DNA of 37,067 nucleotides from Bacilli bacterium (lineage in GTDB: Bacteria > Bacillota_I > Bacilli_A > RF39 > UBA660). The first letter of the stretch is position 1, and each line of letters opens with the position of its first letter. Below are positions 26,920 to 35,951 of this stretch, piece after piece. The notes beneath the pieces were generated by a model, which had not been told where the DNA came from, ran no database searches, and worked only from the letters and a program-made list of their open reading frames with translations. The stretch is from positions 1 through 37,067 of the forward strand of contig JAFWNS010000027.1 in NCBI GenBank assembly GCA_017510225.1. Direction: 5' to 3'. Both the position numbers and the translations under genes were made by a program.

Positions 26920-28242
26920 ATGAAGAATATAATAAAAAACAATTATAAATATGTATTAATATTTATGTTTATATTAATATTTGGTTTAATAGTCATTCCG
27001 GGTGATTTAGATGAAATTTGGAGTTATGGTTTTACCCATAGCATATACAAAGGATTAATACCATATAAAGACTTTAATATGATAGTAACGCCACTATATC
27101 CATTCATATTGTCTCTTCCATTTCATATATTTGGATCTAGTATGTTAGTGTTTCATATTACCCAAGCTTTATTATTTACCGGATTATCATATTTTTTATT
27201 TAAATTAATAGATAAAAAAGCCTGGATAATTATATTATTATTCTTTTTTCCAGTGGCAATATTTTTTCCAGGATATAATTTATTAGTGTTCTTTTTATTA
27301 ATAGTAATAATATATCTAGAAAAGAATAACTATAATGATATATTAATTGGTTTAGTAATAGGATTATCATTTTTAACTAAACAAACATTTATAGTCTTTT
27401 TATTACCTAGTTTAATGTATATACCAAATATAAAAAAGATAAGTAAAAGACTATTAGGTTTTATAATACCTAATATAGTATTTTTAATATATTTAATTTG
27501 TACTAAATCATTTAATAGTTTTATGAATTTATGTATCTATGGACTATTTGATTTTACTTCTGGTAATGGTAAATTATTTACAATATGGATGTTTTTAACA
27601 ATAGTTTTAGTGCTAATAACTATAATATATATTAAAAAACATAAACAAGATATTATGCCATATTATGTAATATTATTTTATACTTTATTAATCCCTTTAT
27701 TTGATGTTAAACACTTTATGGAAGCATTACTTGCTTTCCTATTTATGATTCTTTATTACACAAAAAAAGAAATAAGAATAAACTATGTTTTAGCCTTTAT
27801 AATTATAATAATTTTTGAGTCATGTATAATAATTAGTGATAAAACAAAAACAAAATTACAATATCCAAATAAAATAAATCATTTTGAATATAAATTACTT
27901 GATAAATTTAGTATTGATATTACTAATAGTGTTAATAAATATATTAAAAATAACAAATATAAGAAAATAGTATTTATGGATTCAAACGGTTATTATTTTA
28001 AAATAGTAAATGATTTAAATATAGAATATACTGATTTGCTTAATAAAGGTAACTATGGGTATAATGGAAGTAATAAATTATTAAATGATATTAAGTCTAA
28101 AAAAGATTATATATATTTCATAGATAAACAAGAATTAAAAAGGCCAAAACAAACAGATAAAAGAGCAATTAAGTATGTTTTAAAACATGGAAAGAAAATA
28201 GATACAGTAAAATTATATGAAGTATATACTTTAAATAAATAA
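26920..28242 (+). CDS. GT-C-like polytopic membrane protein (paralogue 2)
   Basis: A 440-residue paralogue of the preceding gene, likely from tandem duplication. Shared blocks are YGFTHSIYKGLIPYKDFNMI, TPLYPFI, FKLIDKKAWI, FFPGYNLLVFFLLI, FLTKQTF and the C-terminal LLNKGNYGYNGSNKLLNDI. The first outer loop has Asp31-Glu32 (PGDLDEIWSYGF), the acidic pair expected for a GT-C catalytic loop, whereas paralogue 1 keeps only the Asp. About ten membrane segments are followed by a soluble C-terminal part. AAGGAG lies before the ATG. The same reservations about donor and acceptor apply. Conserved pairing suggests two related but not identical acceptors or steps. Confidence 0.75.
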   Translation: MKNIIKNNYKYVLIFMFILIFGLIVIPGDLDEIWSYGFTHSIYKGLIPYKDFNMIVTPLYPFILSLPFHIFGSSMLVFHITQALLFTGLSYFLFKLIDKKAWIIILLFFFPVAIFFPGYNLLVFFLLIVIIYLEKNNYNDILIGLVIGLSFLTKQTFIVFLLPSLMYIPNIKKISKRLLGFIIPNIVFLIYLICTKSFNSFMNLCIYGLFDFTSGNGKLFTIWMFLTIVLVLITIIYIKKHKQDIMPYYVILFYTLLIPLFDVKHFMEALLAFLFMILYYTKKEIRINYVLAFIIIIIFESCIIISDKTKTKLQYPNKINHFEYKLLDKFSIDITNSVNKYIKNNKYKKIVFMDSNGYYFKIVNDLNIEYTDLLNKGNYGYNGSNKLLNDIKSKKDYIYFIDKQELKRPKQTDKRAIKYVLKHGKKIDTVKLYEVYTLNK

Positions 28243-28252
28243 AGGTGATATT

Positions 28253-29668
28253 ATGAAGAAAACTAAAAGATTAACTGTTTTATATATACTACTTTTAATA
28301 GCATTCAGTTTTTTATTAATGACTTTTCTAAATAAAAGTTATGATTATTTTTGGCATATCAAAGCAGGGCAATATATGTTTAAAAATAATATAATATTAA
28401 CTCATGATGTATTTTCATGGATAGTTCAAGGTAAATATTGGATATCACATGAATGGTTATTTGAAGTAATAATATATGGTTTAAAAATAGTATTTGGTAA
28501 TATACATGGATTAATATATGTATTTATTAATATATTATTACTTAGTGTTATATTGTTTTATACAAATAAAAAAGAATATTTAAAAAACATTCCTTTTAGT
28601 TTATTATGGATAAGTTTAATGATGATATTTATTGGTTTTATTCAAGTAAGACCTCATCTAATTAGTTATAATTTAATTGCACTTACTATTTATTTATTAT
28701 ATGACTTATATAAAAACAAAGATTCTAATAAAATATATTTATTACCAATACTTAGTATTATATGGTCTAATGTACATGGTGGTTCTAGTAACTTAGTATA
28801 TATTTTAACTATTATATTTTTAGTTAGTGGATTATTTAAATTTTCATATAAAAAGATAGAATCTACTAGATTAAATAAAAAACAAATACAAAAATATATT
28901 ACTGTTATTATATTATGTTTAGTAGGTATATGCATAAATCCACATGGATTAAAGATGCTTATATATCCATATCAAAATATAATGAATAATACTATGTTAA
29001 ATAGTATAGCTGAATGGCAACCTACTAATTTTAGTAATTTATCTCATATACCATATTTGTTATTAATAGTTATAGTAATATTTACTTATCTATTTAGTAA
29101 TAAAAAAATTAGATTAATAGATTTTTTATTAATTGGATTTTCTATTGTATTAGGACTAAAAAGTATTAGATTTTGGCCATACATATATATAATAAGTACT
29201 TATAATATTTTCTACTATATTAATAAAAGAAAATTAGATAAAGGTACTGATTATATATTAATATTACTTATAATTATTATCTTATTACTAGGAATTTTTA
29301 ATTTAAAACATTTAAATAAAACTAATCATATAAAAGTAATAGATAATAAAGCAATTAATTATTTAAAGAGTAAAAAACCTAAGAGATTATATAATTATTA
29401 TGACTATGGGGGTTATTTAGTTTATAAAGATATAAAAGTATTTATAGATGGTAGAGCAGACCTTTACTCAGAATATAATTATAAAGATTATTTAGATATA
29501 TCTAGATTGAATAATAATTATAATAACCTAATTAAAAAATATAATTTTGATTATTATATTATTCCAAAAAAGATAAAATTAAATAAATATTTATCTAATA
29601 GTAATAAATACAAAGTAGAATATAAAGATAATAAGATTATAATTTATAAAAATATTGAAAAAGATTAG
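28253..29668 (+). CDS. GT-C-like polytopic membrane protein with DYFWH motif
   Basis: A 471-residue membrane protein not closely similar to the two before it. It has about ten membrane segments. The first outer loop holds Asp31 in KSYDYFWHIKAGQYMFKNN, then DVFSWIVQGKYWISHEWLFE. This WH-containing loop, the QVRPHLISYNL and INPHGLKMLIYP segments and the C-terminal VFIDGRADLYSEYNYKDY are, as I recall, conserved in a large uncharacterised bacterial GT-C-like family. I infer transfer of a sugar from a lipid carrier outside the membrane, without evidence for the substrate. It starts 10 nt after the previous gene with AAGGTGAT. The ftsA promoter -35 and -10 straddle its last codons. Confidence 0.72.
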   Translation: MKKTKRLTVLYILLLIAFSFLLMTFLNKSYDYFWHIKAGQYMFKNNIILTHDVFSWIVQGKYWISHEWLFEVIIYGLKIVFGNIHGLIYVFINILLLSVILFYTNKKEYLKNIPFSLLWISLMMIFIGFIQVRPHLISYNLIALTIYLLYDLYKNKDSNKIYLLPILSIIWSNVHGGSSNLVYILTIIFLVSGLFKFSYKKIESTRLNKKQIQKYITVIILCLVGICINPHGLKMLIYPYQNIMNNTMLNSIAEWQPTNFSNLSHIPYLLLIVIVIFTYLFSNKKIRLIDFLLIGFSIVLGLKSIRFWPYIYIISTYNIFYYINKRKLDKGTDYILILLIIIILLLGIFNLKHLNKTNHIKVIDNKAINYLKSKKPKRLYNYYDYGGYLVYKDIKVFIDGRADLYSEYNYKDYLDISRLNNNYNNLIKKYNFDYYIIPKKIKLNKYLSNSNKYKVEYKDNKIIIYKNIEKD

Positions 29669-29707: not shown

Positions 29708-30949
29708 ATGGGTAATATATATACTAGTATCGATTTAGGTACTGATAATATTAAAGTATTAGTTGTAGAAAAGCATAATGATAATTATAATATTTTAACA
29801 TCCGTAAGTAGTCCTTCTAAAGGTATTAGTGATGGTGGTATAGTTGATATTAAAGAATGTGTTTCTAGTGTTAAGAAGGCTTTAAAAAAGGCTAATGATA
29901 TGCTTGGTACTAAGATTACTAAAGTAATTGCTTGTGTATCACCAGCTCATTGTAATTTTGATATAGCTATAGGATCAGTAGATGTAGAAGATTATAATAA
30001 GATAACTGGTAATGATATAAGTAATGTATTAAGAGATGCAGTTATAAATCAAATAGATGAAGAACATGAATTAATAACTGCAGTACCAATTAGTTTTACT
30101 ATAGATGATGAAGAAAATATAAAAGATCCTAAAGGACTAAAAGGAAAAGTATTAGAGACTAAAATAGTTTTAGCTACTTCTCCTAAAGAAGAATTATATA
30201 GAATATTAGAAGTGTTAAAACTTAGTGGTGTAGAAGCTATAGATGTAGCATTTACTTCTACTGGAGATTATTATTCTATAAAGAATTCTAAAAGAGATAA
30301 AGAAGCAGGTGCTATTGTTAATATTGGTGAAAATACTACTAATATATCTATATTTAATAAAGGTATTCAAATAAAGAATAAAACTATTAATCTTGGTAGT
30401 ATTAATGTTGATAGAGATTTATCTTTTGTATTTAATATTGATATAGAAACTGCTAAAATAGTTAAAGAAACTTTTGCAATTAGTATGGAGGCTTATGCTG
30501 ATATTAATGATACTAGAGAAGTTAGAACTAAAGATGAGTCTGTAAAGGAAATAGATCAAGTAGAAGTATCTAAAGTAGTTGAATCTAGACTAGTAGAAAT
30601 ACTAAATTTAGTAAAAAAAGAGATAAAAAACTTAACAAATAGAGAAATACGTTATATAATAATAACAGGTGGACTTAGTGAGTTAGCTGGGTTCCAATAT
30701 ATTGTAGATGAAGAACTTGGTTTTAAAGCTAAAGTTTGTAATATTACTGCAGTGGGAATAAGACATAATAAATATAGTAGTGTTTATGGTACTGTTAAAT
30801 ATTTTGATGACAAAATGAATTTAAGAGGAAAGAATACTACAATGATTTCCCCAGATAGTATGAAATCTATTATTAATACAGAAGAAAAAATTGTAAATAA
30901 TAATACAAATATAATAAGTAAAGTGTTTGGGCATTTTTTTGATAATTAA
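29708..30949 (+). CDS. ftsA: Cell division protein FtsA
   Basis: A 413-residue actin-like ATPase that tethers FtsZ to the membrane. The phosphate 1 loop is YTSIDLGTDNIKVLVVE, the 1C (SHS2) domain follows near residues 85-165, phosphate 2 is GAIVNIGENTTNISIFNKG and the adenosine motif is IIITGGLSELAGFQ. The C-terminus after a variable linker ends NIISKVFGHFFDN, a short amphipathic helix that should bind the membrane. AGGAGG precedes ATG 29708. ftsZ follows after 12 nt. Confidence 0.96.
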   Translation: MGNIYTSIDLGTDNIKVLVVEKHNDNYNILTSVSSPSKGISDGGIVDIKECVSSVKKALKKANDMLGTKITKVIACVSPAHCNFDIAIGSVDVEDYNKITGNDISNVLRDAVINQIDEEHELITAVPISFTIDDEENIKDPKGLKGKVLETKIVLATSPKEELYRILEVLKLSGVEAIDVAFTSTGDYYSIKNSKRDKEAGAIVNIGENTTNISIFNKGIQIKNKTINLGSINVDRDLSFVFNIDIETAKIVKETFAISMEAYADINDTREVRTKDESVKEIDQVEVSKVVESRLVEILNLVKKEIKNLTNREIRYIIITGGLSELAGFQYIVDEELGFKAKVCNITAVGIRHNKYSSVYGTVKYFDDKMNLRGKNTTMISPDSMKSIINTEEKIVNNNTNIISKVFGHFFDN

Positions 30950-30961
30950 GGAGGACAAGAT

Positions 30962-32083
30962 ATGTTAGGCGGATTAGAAATGGATCAATTAGCAAAAATT
31001 AAAGTTATAGGACTTGGTGGCGGTGGAGGAAACGCCGTTAATAGAATGGTAGAGTCAGGAGTAAAAGGAGTAGAATTTATTGCTGCTAATACTGACTTAC
31101 AAGTTTTAAATTCATCAAAAGCAGATGTTAAGATTCAAATTGGAGCATCTTTAACTGATGGATTAGGAGCAGGAGCTAAACCAGAAATTGGTAAAGAAGC
31201 TGCAGTAGAATCTAAAAAAGAGATAGAAGATGCTTTAGCAGGAGCAGACATGGTATTTATCACTTGCGGAATGGGTGGAGGTACTGGAACAGGAGCTGCA
31301 CCAATTATTGCAGAAATAGCTCAAGGTTTAGGAGCATTAACAGTAGCTATAGTTACTAAACCATTCTCATTTGAAGGTAAAAGAAGAATGGATAACGCTC
31401 TAAAAGGTATTGAAGAATTAAGAAAACATGTAGATACACTAATTGTGATTCCAAATGATAGATTAAGAGAAATAATTGATAAGACTACACCAATGTTAGA
31501 AGCATTCAAAGAAGTTGATAATGTACTTCGTCGTGGTGTTCAATCAATATCAGATTTAATTGCTGTTGTTGGACTTGTTAACTTAGACTTTGCTGATGTT
31601 AAAGCAGTTATGAAAGATAGTGGACATGCAATTATTGGAATTGGTATTGGAATGGGTGAAGATAGAGCAATCGAAGCTGCTAAACAGGCAGTATCATCAC
31701 CACTACTTGAAACATCAATCGATGGTGCGACAGATGCAATTATTAATATTACAGGTGGAGTTAACCTAACATTATTCGAAGCAGAACAAGCTGCAGAAGT
31801 AGTTAGAAGTGCTGCTAATACTGATATTAACACAATCTTTGGTTCTGTTATTAATGAAAACTTAAGTGATGAAGTTATTGTTACTGTAATTGCTACAGGA
31901 TTTGAAAAGAAAGAACCTAAAAAAGAACAAAAAGATCCAGTATTTAGTAATGCTGCATCTGCTAGAAGAAGTGCTTCAAACTCACATCCTGAAGTATTAA
32001 CACAAAAGACTAAACCAAAAGAAAAAGAAGAAGAGGAAGACGACTTTGATTTTCCACCATTTCTAAGAGATAGAAATTATTAA
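30962..32083 (+). CDS. ftsZ: Cell division protein FtsZ
   Basis: A 373-residue tubulin-like GTPase that forms the division ring. GTP-binding segments are [13 protein letters not shown] and the tubulin signature [19 protein letters not shown]. The T7 synergy loop is [12 protein letters not shown] Lys/Glu-rich linker leads to the conserved C-terminal peptide ([14 protein letters not shown]) that binds FtsA and other partners. AAGGAGG is 7-8 nt before ATG 30962, so this start is preferred to ATG 30980. The gene is visibly less AT-biased at codon third positions than the membrane genes before it, as expected for high expression. A strong terminator follows. Confidence 0.98.
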
Positions 32084-32088
32084 AAAAT

Positions 32089-32114
32089 AAAACTAGGATT
32101 TATCCTAGTTTTTT
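32089..32114. terminator. Terminator between ftsZ and the arginase-like gene
   Basis: A perfect 10-bp stem, AAAACTAGGA (32089-32098) with TCCTAGTTTT (32103-32112), 4-nt loop, then a T-run. The A-rich left side allows it to act for the minus-strand gene too. Confidence 0.85.
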
Positions 32115-33021
32115 AATATATTTTATCAAAATGTTTACCTTTCTTATTAGCAGCATTTATAACTTGAGCTAATAAGTTTAAAGCAATTTGTTCAGTTTTT
32201 CTATTTTCATCTCTTAATGAGTTAAAATCAATTAAATCATAAGCCATAATATCTTCAATATGTTTTAATATTTCTTGATTAAGTGTCATTCCTTCTTCTT
32301 CAGTTAAACCTTCAAATTCAGGTATAGATACACCAGGTGCTACATCTGGATCAAATATATCTAAACAAAAGCAAACATGAATACCACTTGTTTTACGAGA
32401 AGCAATTTCAAAAGCTTCTTTTATTACTGTTTCAATTCCTTTAGATTTAATATCTTCAGTAGTATAAGCATTAATAGAAGCATATCTCATATTTTCAGAC
32501 TCTCTATCATCAGTATTTCTAGTTCCAACAATAACGGATTTAGCAGTTTGAATAACATTTCCATCATGGAAATATCTTAATTCATGATTTTTATAACCAT
32601 TAATAGCACTCATACTAAGACCAGCAATATTACCAGTGATAGTAGAATCAAAAGTATTATAATCTGCATGTGAACTAATCCATATGATTCCAGTATTATC
32701 ATTACCATTTCTTTTTGCACTAGCTAAGGCAGAAGCAACCGCAACAGATTTATCTCCTCCAATAGTAATAGGAAATACATCTTCTTTAGTTTTTTCTAAA
32801 ATAGTTTTATATAATTCTTCATTAAATTTTTCGATTTCATATTCATTTTTTCTACGATCAGATAAATTTCTACTCTTAATAACATTCTCATCTTGTTTAA
32901 ATTCTATTATTTCGTCTTTATAAAAACTTTTCAAATCTTTCACTAATTGAACAGGTCCTAAAGAAGCACCATCTATATGAACTCCTAAATCACTACCTGC
33001 ACCCAAAATAACAGTCTTCAT
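32113..33021 (-). CDS. Arginase/ureohydrolase-fold protein with degenerate metal site
   Basis: A 302-residue protein with the overall arginase/agmatinase/formiminoglutamase plan: start VILGAGSDLGVHIDGASLGP, then ITIGGDKSVAVASALA, WISSHADYNTF, FCLDIFDPDVAPGVSIPEFE GLT and YDLIDFNSLRDE. Compared with arginase, the ligand His of GGDHS is Lys91, the first Asp of DAHxD is Ser116, and the first Asp of SFDxD is Cys219. His118, Asp120 and Asp221 remain, and the catalytic-site Glu of MEVNP is Asp265. Three of six manganese ligands are therefore lost, including both that bridge the two metals. I infer a non-canonical enzyme or a regulatory or binding protein, not an ordinary arginase. GGTGAT precedes the ATG, and the gene stands alone, divergent from murE. 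Confidence 0.88.
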   Translation of the reverse strand: MKTVILGAGSDLGVHIDGASLGPVQLVKDLKSFYKDEIIEFKQDENVIKSRNLSDRRKNEYEIEKFNEELYKTILEKTKEDVFPITIGGDKSVAVASALASAKRNGNDNTGIIWISSHADYNTFDSTITGNIAGLSMSAINGYKNHELRYFHDGNVIQTAKSVIVGTRNTDDRESENMRYASINAYTTEDIKSKGIETVIKEAFEIASRKTSGIHVCFCLDIFDPDVAPGVSIPEFEGLTEEEGMTLNQEILKHIEDIMAYDLIDFNSLRDENRKTEQIALNLLAQVINAANKKGKHFDKIY

Positions 33022-33073
33022 ATTATCACCATAACTATTTTATCATAATTTATATATCATATACATAAAAGTA

Positions 33074-33102
33074 TTCAATTTTATCGTAAAATAATGTATA
33101 AT
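33074..33102 (+). promoter_or_regulatory. Promoter of murE-flippase unit
   Basis: TTCAAT (33074-33079), 17-nt spacer, TATAAT (33097-33102), 16 nt before murE. The arginase-like gene must have its minus-strand promoter in the same 97-nt region. Confidence 0.6.
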
Positions 33103-33118
33103 AAGAATAGGTGATAAC

Positions 33119-34525
33119 ATGAAATTATTAAGTGAATTATATAGTGGATATCCAGACATAGAAATTAAAGGAATAAAAATAAATTCAAAACAAATAGAAC
33201 CAGGTGATATTTTTGTATGTACTATGGGTGTTACTGCAGATAGACATGATTTTATTGATGAAGCTATCTCTAATGGTGCAAGTGCTATTGTAGTAAGTAA
33301 AGATGTAGAATGTAATGTCCCAACTATAAAAGTGGATAATACAAACGAAGAGTTAAGAAAATTAGCTAAGAAATTTTATGATAATGCAGACGAAGATTTA
33401 AAACTCATCGCAACTACTGGTACAAATGGGAAAACTACTGTATCTAAATTAATACAAGATTTAATGGGTGAAGATATATGTGGTTATATGGGAACTTCTG
33501 GAATAATTTCATCAAAATTTAACGAAAAAATAATAAATACAACTGCAGATGCAGATAGATTATATATGTACTTTAAAATGTTTGTAGATGCAGGATGTAA
33601 GTATTTAAGTATGGAAACATCTAGTGAAGCATATTTTAGACATAGATTAGATGATATATACTTTGATATTGGTATAGTAACTAATATTACAGAAGATCAT
33701 TTAAATATCCATAAAACTGTAGAAAATTATGTTTCTTGTAAAAAAGAGATGTTAGATCACATAAAAAAAGATGGTTATGCAGTATTAAATACAGATGATA
33801 AATACTATGAAGAGTTTAAAAATAATGTTAATTCTAATTTAGTAACATATGGTATGAATAATGCAGATTTCTTAATAAAAGATTTAGAAGTAACTAATAA
33901 AGATACTAAATTTACAATAGAATATAATTCTAACGATTATAAAATAGTTAGTCCATTATTTGGAGATTTTAATGCTTATAATTTAACTGCAGCGATTGCA
34001 ACATTAGTATGTTTAGGTTATAAAATAGACGATATTATAGAAAAAATACCTAATATAAAACCTTTAGCTGGTCGTGTAGAATTTTTAAATTATGGACAAA
34101 AATATGACATAGTATTAGATTATGCTCATACTACAGATTCATTTTTAAAATTATATCCAGTACTACATAAAATAAAAAGAGGTAAAATAATTACTGTTAC
34201 AGGTTCTGCAGGAGGAAGAGAAAAAGAAAAAAGAGGACCTATGGGTAAAGTAGTATTAGATAATTCTGATTATGTTATATTTACTATGGATGATCCTAGA
34301 AATGAGGACGTTAATGAAATTATAGATGATTTAGTATCACTATCAGATAAATCTAATTATGAAAGAATAATTAATAGAAAAGAAGCTATTAAAAAAGCTT
34401 TTGATATGGCAGAAGATAATGATTTAGTATTAATTGCTGGTAAAGGTAATGATAATTATATGGCAATTGAAGATAAATATGAACCATATTGTGATTTAGA
34501 TGTTATAGAAGATTACTTTAAATAA
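33119..34525 (+). CDS. murE: UDP-MurNAc-tripeptide ligase MurE
   Basis: A 468-residue Mur ligase that adds the third amino acid to UDP-MurNAc-L-Ala-D-Glu in the cytoplasm. The N-terminal UDP-binding domain has IKINSKQIEPGDIFVCTMG. The ATP loop is TTGTNGKTTVSKLIQ, followed by METSSEAYFRHRLD and TNITEDHLNIHKTVENYVSC. The C-terminal domain has DYAHTTDSFLKL, VTGSAGGREKEKRGPMG, MDDPRNEDVNEI and LIAGKGNDNY. The amino-acid-specificity motif reads DDPR: the Arg of the diaminopimelate-type DNPR is kept but the Asn is not, so whether the residue is mDAP or a basic amino acid such as Lys stays open. GGTGATAAC is the ribosome site. Confidence 0.93.
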   Translation: MKLLSELYSGYPDIEIKGIKINSKQIEPGDIFVCTMGVTADRHDFIDEAISNGASAIVVSKDVECNVPTIKVDNTNEELRKLAKKFYDNADEDLKLIATTGTNGKTTVSKLIQDLMGEDICGYMGTSGIISSKFNEKIINTTADADRLYMYFKMFVDAGCKYLSMETSSEAYFRHRLDDIYFDIGIVTNITEDHLNIHKTVENYVSCKKEMLDHIKKDGYAVLNTDDKYYEEFKNNVNSNLVTYGMNNADFLIKDLEVTNKDTKFTIEYNSNDYKIVSPLFGDFNAYNLTAAIATLVCLGYKIDDIIEKIPNIKPLAGRVEFLNYGQKYDIVLDYAHTTDSFLKLYPVLHKIKRGKIITVTGSAGGREKEKRGPMGKVVLDNSDYVIFTMDDPRNEDVNEIIDDLVSLSDKSNYERIINRKEAIKKAFDMAEDNDLVLIAGKGNDNYMAIEDKYEPYCDLDVIEDYFK

Positions 34526-34538
34526 TAAGGAGAAACAC

Positions 34539-35951
34539 ATGAGTAAAAAGAAAGAATTAATGAAAAATACAATTATAATATTTTTAGGTAGGGTATGTAC
34601 TCAGTTAATTTCATTTTTCTTATTACCACTATATACTAGTTTTTTATTAACAAAAGAGTATGGTGTTGTTGATTTAATAACTACGTATGTAACATTATTA
34701 GTTCCAATTATTACATTAGAACTAGAAATGAGTGTCTTTAGATACTTAATTGATGTTAGAAAGAATGAAAAAGAAACTAAAAAGATACTTAGTAATAACT
34801 TCTTAGTATTATTAGTATCACTATTACTATTTGGATTAGCCTATATAATAGTAACATGTTTCTGGCATTTTGATTTTAGATGGTTAATATTATTTGATAT
34901 TATAGTATGTACATTCTCAGGAAACTTCTTACAGATTGCTAGAGGTTTAGGAAGAACAGTCGATTATGCAATAAGTTGTATAATTACTGGAGTATCTACA
35001 ATACTTTTAAATATATTATTTATTGTAGTATTAAAAATGGGTGCTTTTGGAATGATTATTTCTATGGCACTAGCTAATGGATTTGGAGCACTATATTTAT
35101 TTATTAGATTAAAACTATATAATAAAATAAACTTTAAATTAAAAGATACTAAACTTATAAAGAGTATGTATAAATATTCTATTCCTTTAGTACCTAATGG
35201 AGTTAGTTGGTGGGTAGTAAATGTATCAGATAGAACAATTATATCTATAATATTAAGTACTGCTGCTAATGGTATATATGCTATTAGTAATAAATTCCCA
35301 ACTATTATATCTAGTTTATTAGGTATATTTAACTTATCTTGGTCTGAAAGCGCTGCACTACATATAAATAGTCCTGATAGAGATAAATTCTTTACAGATG
35401 TATTAAATACAGTTACTAAACTATTTACATCTCTAGGAGTAGGAATGATAGCTTGTATGCCATTTGTATTCCCAATACTTATTAATCATAAATATGTAGA
35501 TGCATTTAACTATATACCTATCTTAATAATTGCAACAGTATTTAATGTAGCCATTTGTATGTATACAGGTATTTATATAGCTAAGAAAATGACTAAACAA
35601 GTGGCATCTACTACTATAATAGGAGCAATAATTAATATAGTAATAAACTTACTATTTATTAAACTAATAGGTATATATGCCGCAGCTATCTCAACTGCAG
35701 TATCTTACTTTGCTATGATGGTATATAGACACATTGATTTAAAGAAATATGTAAATATTAAATATGAAAAGGGATTAATTATTAATACAATTATAATATT
35801 TACTTTCTCAATCATAATCTATTATCAACATATCTTTGTATTAGATGTAATCAATTTATTAATAGTAATTATTTATGCATATATAATTAATAGAAAATTT
35901 TTAAAGAATTGGAAAAATATTATCTTTAAAAAATTAGGTTTCAAACAATAA
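34539..35951 (+). CDS. Wzx-type polysaccharide/lipid-linked oligosaccharide flippase
   Basis: A 470-residue membrane protein of the MOP superfamily (polysaccharide biosynthesis type), with about 12-14 membrane segments. The N-terminus KNTIIIFLGRVCTQLISFFL followed by LPLYTSFLLTKEYGVVDL is the usual PST/Wzx start. The central YSIPLVPNGVSWWVVNVSDR and FPTIISSLLGIFNLSWSESA also match that family. Such proteins flip undecaprenyl-linked glycans to the outer face. It lies 13 nt after murE and shares its transcript, so the cargo could be lipid II or another wall glycan. This is inference: MurJ proteins belong to the same superfamily but a different branch. A terminator follows directly. Confidence 0.88.
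   Translation: MSKKKELMKNTIIIFLGRVCTQLISFFLLPLYTSFLLTKEYGVVDLITTYVTLLVPIITLELEMSVFRYLIDVRKNEKETKKILSNNFLVLLVSLLLFGLAYIIVTCFWHFDFRWLILFDIIVCTFSGNFLQIARGLGRTVDYAISCIITGVSTILLNILFIVVLKMGAFGMIISMALANGFGALYLFIRLKLYNKINFKLKDTKLIKSMYKYSIPLVPNGVSWWVVNVSDRTIISIILSTAANGIYAISNKFPTIISSLLGIFNLSWSESAALHINSPDRDKFFTDVLNTVTKLFTSLGVGMIACMPFVFPILINHKYVDAFNYIPILIIATVFNVAICMYTGIYIAKKMTKQVASTTIIGAIINIVINLLFIKLIGIYAAAISTAVSYFAMMVYRHIDLKKYVNIKYEKGLIINTIIIFTFSIIIYYQHIFVLDVINLLIVIIYAYIINRKFLKNWKNIIFKKLGFKQ

What the first reader, a model, noticed from the sequence alone, without database searches (positions are those of the whole stretch)
32113..33021. Arginase-fold protein that has lost both bridging manganese ligands
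The fold signatures are clear, but GGDHS is GGDKS (Lys91), DAHxDxN is SSHADYN (Ser116) and SFDxDxxDP is CFCLDIFDP (Cys219). Half of the six canonical Mn ligands are replaced, including both Asp residues that bridge the metal pair, and the substrate-site Glu is Asp265. His118, Asp120 and Asp221 are intact, and the reading frame is undamaged, so the protein is maintained by selection. It may be a ureohydrolase using a single or different metal (Cys could favour Zn or Fe), another amidinohydrolase-like reaction, or a sensor. The gene stands alone beside ftsZ and murE, with no arginine-catabolism genes near it.
Basis: partly seen in the sequence, partly recalled or inferred. Interest (0 to 1): 0.72.

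Follow-up and report, generated by a model that had tools for sequence, protein, structure and literature searches.

The report
Dead arginase beside a swapped MurE
A gut bacterium keeps an arginase-shaped protein that has lost its metal-binding catalytic centre; in related bacteria the working version sits beside, and almost never without, a particular cell-wall enzyme, which suggests it once made ornithine for the wall and was retired when the wall chemistry changed.

Summary
In detail: window 32113-33021, minus strand, encodes a 302-residue arginase-fold protein with His91>Lys, Asp116>Ser, Asp219>Cys and Glu265>Asp. The same five replacements occur in two other species of the genus although the proteins are only 67-71% identical, so the altered site is itself conserved. 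It is almost certainly not a Mn arginase. Pseudo-arginases with lost bridging Asp are known (Fusobacterium ODA domain, T. brucei, MetCb), so this part is a variant of a known kind.

The new part is the context. In relatives, intact arginase is divergently paired with a MurE paralogue ('MurE-E', Glu-Asp-Pro-Arg motif): 33 of 33 intact loci have it, against 1 of 15 degenerate ones, over at least 9 independent losses. No genome checked has DapF. MurE-E has Glu/Glu where the other MurE has Asp/Asp at the two side-chain-amine contacts, as expected for a diamino acid one carbon shorter. I infer that arginase fed ornithine to an ornithine-adding MurE. The window genus has lost MurE-E and carries the Asp/Asp MurE at that spot; its arginase became a pseudoenzyme. 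What it does now is not shown.

The parts
32113..33021 (-). Arginase-fold pseudoenzyme, 302 aa (P0001)
   Evidence: PF00491, arginase top hits in PDB by sequence and fold
32749..32751 (-). Codon of Lys91 (canonical Mn-A ligand His101 in rat arginase)
   Evidence: Lys in all three species of the trio, His in all intact homologues
32674..32676 (-). Codon of Ser116 (bridging ligand Asp124)
32623..32625 (-).
32365..32367 (-). Codon of Cys219 (bridging ligand Asp232)
32227..32229 (-). Codon of Asp265 (guanidinium-site Glu277)
33022..33118 (.). Divergent intergenic region between arginase and MurE starts; -10-like boxes for both genes kept, the arginase -35-like TTGATA of relatives lost in the trio
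   Evidence: consensus match only
33119..34525 (+). MurE ligase of the 'MurE-D' type (DDPR at 391-394, Asp445), occupying the position held by 'MurE-E' (EDPR) in relatives with intact arginase
30962..32083 (+). ftsZ, convergent neighbour (about 30 bp gap)
   Evidence: order kept in many relatives
29708..30949 (+). ftsA-like gene, context only

Best explanation
The protein is a catalytically dead descendant of an arginase. In its relatives the working arginase is divergently paired with a MurE paralogue (MurE-E), and I infer that it supplies L-ornithine which MurE-E adds to the peptidoglycan stem. In the window's genus MurE-E is gone and the ligase at that spot is the other MurE type (MurE-D, inferred to use L-lysine), so ornithine production is no longer needed. 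The arginase lost the binuclear Mn site, the catalytic His and the guanidinium-site Glu, but kept the fold and the residues that in arginase hold the amino-acid end of the substrate. The conserved new pocket (Lys91, Ser116, Ala133, Cys219, Asp265) suggests a non-catalytic role, most likely binding a basic amino acid as a sensor or protein partner, with Lys91 possibly standing in for the metal charge. Shown: residue changes, repeated losses, the MurE correlation, conservation of the new site. Inferred: ornithine and lysine as the MurE substrates, the replacement history, loss of activity, and the present function.
For: Five catalytic residues replaced identically in three species; a neutral model gives P about 6e-7 (5e-4 at half the rate) that all five stay the same. 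Active-site positions lost in excess of other invariant sites (5/8 vs 15/107, p=0.004), while N122, T127, T129, N131, R168, D/E171 and E174 (amino-acid end) are kept. No second PF00491 protein in the genome or in G004. At least 9 independent ligand losses in the clade. Canonical MurE-E neighbour: 33/33 intact, 1/15 degenerate, Fisher p=3e-11; phylogenetically independent pairs 6:0, p=0.03. MurE-E is one supported clade; contacts equivalent to S. aureus Asp406/Glu460, which bind the lysine amine (PMC3829189), are E/E in 54/54 (one gap) MurE-E and D/D in nearly all MurE-D. DapF absent in 45/45 genomes, OTC/ATC absent in 35/45, OKR decarboxylase and PF02784 nearly absent. Window MurE is closest to T. 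maritima LD-lysine ligase. The pair recurs in another family of the class (L182).
Against: No biochemistry: neither MurE substrate is known, and no MurE from an organism known to have ornithine in its wall could be compared. L094 has a degenerate arginase with an intact MurE-E. Intact but more distant arginases (L060, L080, L091, L097, L100, and G221 at a contig end) lack a detected MurE-E, and G436 has an EDPR MurE without adjacent arginase, so the link holds within a clade and not for all arginases. dN/dS of the trio is two- to threefold that of most intact pairs and its -35-like box has decayed, which would also fit a gene on its way out. Ornithine aminotransferase was not tested. Some genomes are MAGs below 95% completeness.
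Confidence: 0.62

Rival explanations
1. Decaying relic: once MurE-E was lost the arginase became dispensable and is drifting towards loss, with no present function.
For: Raised dN/dS (0.24-0.32 vs mostly 0.03-0.15 in intact pairs); -35-like box lost; most genomes of the family have no arginase (56 of 243 have a match); arginase split over two contigs in G220.
Against: Full-length frames in all four species of the genus; dN/dS well below 1; the five replaced residues are identical in three species; the rest of the invariant scaffold is mostly kept (92 of 107 sites).
Confidence: 0.22
2. An active hydrolase with one metal (for example Zn or Fe held by His118, Cys219 and Asp221, with Lys91 in the other site) acting on a guanidino or related substrate.
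For: His118, Asp120, Asp221 and the new Cys219 are conserved in the trio; amino-acid end of the pocket kept.
Against: Catalytic His>Ala and Glu>Asp; the sister species L025 has Asn219, not Cys; known proteins with lost bridging Asp are inactive (PMC12826042, PMC11271267).
Confidence: 0.1
3. Inactive subunit of a mixed hexamer with an active paralogue, as MetCb with MetCa.
For: MetCb is a metal-free ureohydrolase subunit (PMC11271267).
Against: Only one PF00491 protein in G000, and one each in G001, G002, G003 by protein search and in G004 by family search.
Confidence: 0.03

Closest known systems
RocF-type arginase (TIGR01229; B. caldovelox 2cev, B. subtilis 6dkt)
   Same: Fold, length, substrate amino-acid-end residues, best family match
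   Different: Three of six Mn ligands, catalytic His and guanidinium Glu replaced; TIGR01229 score 149 against a cut-off of 227.6; even the intact homologue P0004 scores only 198.6
[quoted passage not shown]
   Same: Best sequence hit in the PDB; Asp>Ser at the position of Ser116; reported non-functional (PMC12826042)
   Different: Fused to ODC; its second loss is Asp>Asn at the position of Asp221, whereas here it is Asp>Cys at 219; His ligand not Lys
Trypanosoma brucei arginase-like protein
   Same: Arginase-fold protein without a binuclear Mn cluster (cited in PMC11271267)
   Different: Eukaryotic; residues not compared here because the paper is not held
MetCb of metformin hydrolase
   Same: Metal-free pseudoenzyme of the ureohydrolase family
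   Different: Works with an active paralogue MetCa; no paralogue here
MurE of Thermotoga maritima (4bub, LD-lysine ligase)
   Same: Closest solved relative of the window MurE; DDPR motif
   Different: Second amine-contact residue Asp in the window, Glu in T. maritima (alignment)

Membership tests
Arginase (EC 3.5.3.1) | Ureohydrolase fold | tested here: met
Arginase (EC 3.5.3.1) | Six Mn ligands (three motifs) | tested here: not met
   K91, S116, C219 in place of H, D, D
Arginase (EC 3.5.3.1) | Catalytic His141 and guanidinium Glu277 | tested here: not met
   A133 and D265
Arginase (EC 3.5.3.1) | Residues binding the alpha-amino/carboxylate end of arginine | tested here: met
   N122, T127, T129, N131, R168, D171, E174 present
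Arginase (EC 3.5.3.1) | Score above the curated equivalog cut-off TIGR01229 | tested here: not met
   149.2 vs 227.6
Arginase (EC 3.5.3.1) | Arginine hydrolysis | not testable with these tools
   needs an assay
Pseudo-arginases (metal-free arginase-fold proteins) | Arginase fold with loss of bridging metal ligands | tested here: met
Pseudo-arginases (metal-free arginase-fold proteins) | No metal bound, no activity | not testable with these tools
   needs purified protein
MetCa/MetCb-type heteromer | Active paralogue in the same genome | tested here: not met
   single PF00491 hit
MurE ligase (window neighbour) | TIGR01085 above cut-off | tested here: met
   407 vs 257 bits

The most novel reading that the evidence does not exclude
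After the wall changed from an ornithine-using to another MurE type, the ornithine-making arginase was turned into a non-catalytic sensor or partner for a basic amino acid that controls the neighbouring MurE step, with a lysine replacing the metal charge in the old active site.
Probability: 0.25. Interest if true: 0.8.

Novelty: new variant of a known kind. Interest (0 to 1): 0.6.

Why it matters
If right, it links arginase to peptidoglycan chemistry through a dedicated MurE, gives a sequence signature (EDPR with Glu at both amine contacts) for an ornithine-adding MurE, and offers repeated natural experiments in which loss of the partner goes with loss of arginase catalysis. It also bears on a reported puzzle: these uncultured Bacilli orders were predicted to have m-DAP walls with missing precursor steps (PMC10868615), whereas the genomes checked here lack DapF and carry DDPR/EDPR MurE. 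I found no paper in the held library that connects arginase with MurE in this way.

Tried and rejected
Sequencing or assembly error: rejected, identical set in separate MAGs. Pseudogene in the strict sense: rejected, full frames and dN/dS well below 1. Mixed hexamer with an active paralogue: no paralogue. Different residues filling the ligand positions: motif alignment is gap-free at these sites, so no shifted acids. IQ-TREE codon omega could not be read from its output, so only NG86 pairwise values are used; dS is near saturation. One search was a mistaken query (a made-up 62-residue peptide); nothing is drawn from it. The Trypanosoma structure paper is not held. Coordinates of the AlphaFold model were not available, so the position of Lys91 could not be measured. 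The placement of L053/L054 beside the window genus in the arginase tree may be long-branch attraction, as their MurE lies elsewhere.

Full report
What is there. Window 32113-33021 on the minus strand encodes a 302-residue protein of the arginase family (PF00491, E=1.8e-44; closest equivalog TIGR01229 arginase but below its cut-off). An AlphaFold2 model from 21 sequences has pTM 0.84 and its best Foldseek matches are bacterial arginases. By the gap-free motif alignments, Lys91, Ser116 and Cys219 stand where arginases have the Mn ligands His101, Asp124 and Asp232 (rat numbering; the two Asp bridge the metals: established knowledge). Asp265 replaces Glu277. His118, Asp120 and Asp221 remain.

It is shared and conserved. 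Homologues come from MAGs titled uncultured Bacilli, Bacillales or Erysipelotrichaceae, with genomes of about 1 Mb. Two other species of the window's genus, 67-71% identical in this protein, carry exactly the same K91/S116/A133/C219/D265; a fourth (L025) has S116/N133/N219 with H91 and E265 kept. Of the seven residues shared by the trio and never seen in intact homologues, five are these catalytic positions. Under a simple neutral codon model with the observed dS, the chance that all five stay unchanged in all three species is about 6e-7, or 5e-4 at half the rate. NG86 dN/dS is 0.24-0.32 in the trio against mostly 0.03-0.15 in intact pairs (dS near saturation). So constraint is relaxed but not gone, and the altered pocket is held. 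The residues that in arginase grip the amino-acid end of the substrate are kept in the window protein.

Loss is recurrent. Among 81 homologues, at least nine separate losses of metal ligands occur inside one clade of about 50 sequences; none is seen among the more distant ones. The replacements differ from case to case (for example H118Q+D120N in L031, D219S in L037, D221G in L007).

The partner. The arginase gene is nearly always divergently transcribed, about 100 bp away, from a MurE ligase, also in homologues only 40% identical to the window protein and whether or not ftsZ is near. These MurE proteins fall into two types. MurE-E has the motif GERDxxKRP...EDPRSEDP...GKGNETY and forms one clade; MurE-D has GGREKEKR...DDPR...GKGRDNY and is found both in arginase-free genomes and as a second, unlinked copy in many genomes that have MurE-E. 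By my reading of the truncated list, 24 of 33 MurE-E genomes also show MurE-D and nine show only MurE-E; where MurE-E is alone it must serve as the cell's MurE. The window genus has MurE-D at the arginase locus and no MurE-E hit. In the clade of homologues at least 47.5% identical to the window protein, 33 of 33 intact arginases have a canonical MurE-E neighbour, against 1 of 15 degenerate ones (Fisher p=3e-11; phylogenetically independent pairs 6 to 0, p=0.03). L043 has a degenerate arginase beside a MurE-E that is itself degenerating on a long branch. The pair with intact arginase also occurs in another family of the class (L182).

What it likely means. S. aureus MurE binds the side-chain amine of lysine with Asp406, the first residue of its DNPA motif, and Glu460 (PMC3829189). 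At these two places MurE-E has Glu/Glu (54 of 54, one gap) and MurE-D Asp/Asp. A longer acid at both contacts suits a shorter diamino acid, hence ornithine; this is inference. DapF is absent from all 45 genomes checked (the control search found it in E. coli, B. subtilis and T. maritima), so m-DAP made through DapF is unlikely. OTC/ATC-type carbamoyltransferases are absent from 35 of 45 and the two decarboxylase families tested are nearly absent, leaving arginase as the likely ornithine source and MurE-E as its likely sink. The window MurE is closest to the T. maritima LD-lysine ligase. The simplest history: ornithine-type wall with arginase plus MurE-E, then dual MurE, then loss of MurE-E, then loss of arginase catalysis. 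The order of these steps was not tested.

What the protein does now. Precedents show that arginase-fold proteins without bridging Asp are inactive: the ODA arginase domain of F. nucleatum (PMC12826042; PDB 8d27, the best PDB hit), the T. brucei protein and MetCb (PMC11271267). With the catalytic His also gone, hydrolysis is unlikely. A mixed hexamer is not supported because no paralogue was found. I favour a non-catalytic binder of a basic amino acid, perhaps acting on the adjacent MurE step. This last step is a guess, and slow decay is the main rival: the -35-like box before the gene is lost in the trio although most other degenerate homologues keep it.

Limits. No assay exists. L094 breaks the rule, several distant intact arginases have no MurE-E, and G221 ends at a contig edge. 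MAGs can be incomplete. The taxonomic order of the window was not established by a tool; similarity to the RF39-type gut Bacilli of PMC10868615 is inference from genome size and MAG titles.

Noticed in passing
L043 (G243): Degenerate arginase (D120G, H133Q) sits beside a MurE-E that has itself lost motif residues (NGDILNR, QDPR) and lies on a long branch: both genes appear to decay together.
   Followed up: partly
L053, L054 (G214, G088): All six metal-ligand positions plus the catalytic His and Glu positions are changed, yet the frames are full-length; their neighbour MurE is a basal MurE-E relative with DDPR.
   Followed up: partly
45 genomes, all but two of the window's family: No DAP epimerase in any, although a published survey (PMC10868615) predicts m-DAP type walls with missing steps for related orders.
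   Followed up: partly
L184 (G436): EDPR-type MurE without an arginase within 1.5 kb, in another family of the class.
   Followed up: no
window 33022-33118: Compact divergent promoter region; the arginase-side TTGATA -35-like box of relatives is lost in the three-species trio, while most other degenerate homologues keep it.
   Followed up: partly
window 34539-35951: Flippase-like membrane protein following murE; a homologue lies near the arginase locus in many relatives.
   Followed up: no
window 26920-29668: Two large multi-pass membrane proteins with homologues upstream of ftsA in several relatives; function not examined.
   Followed up: no
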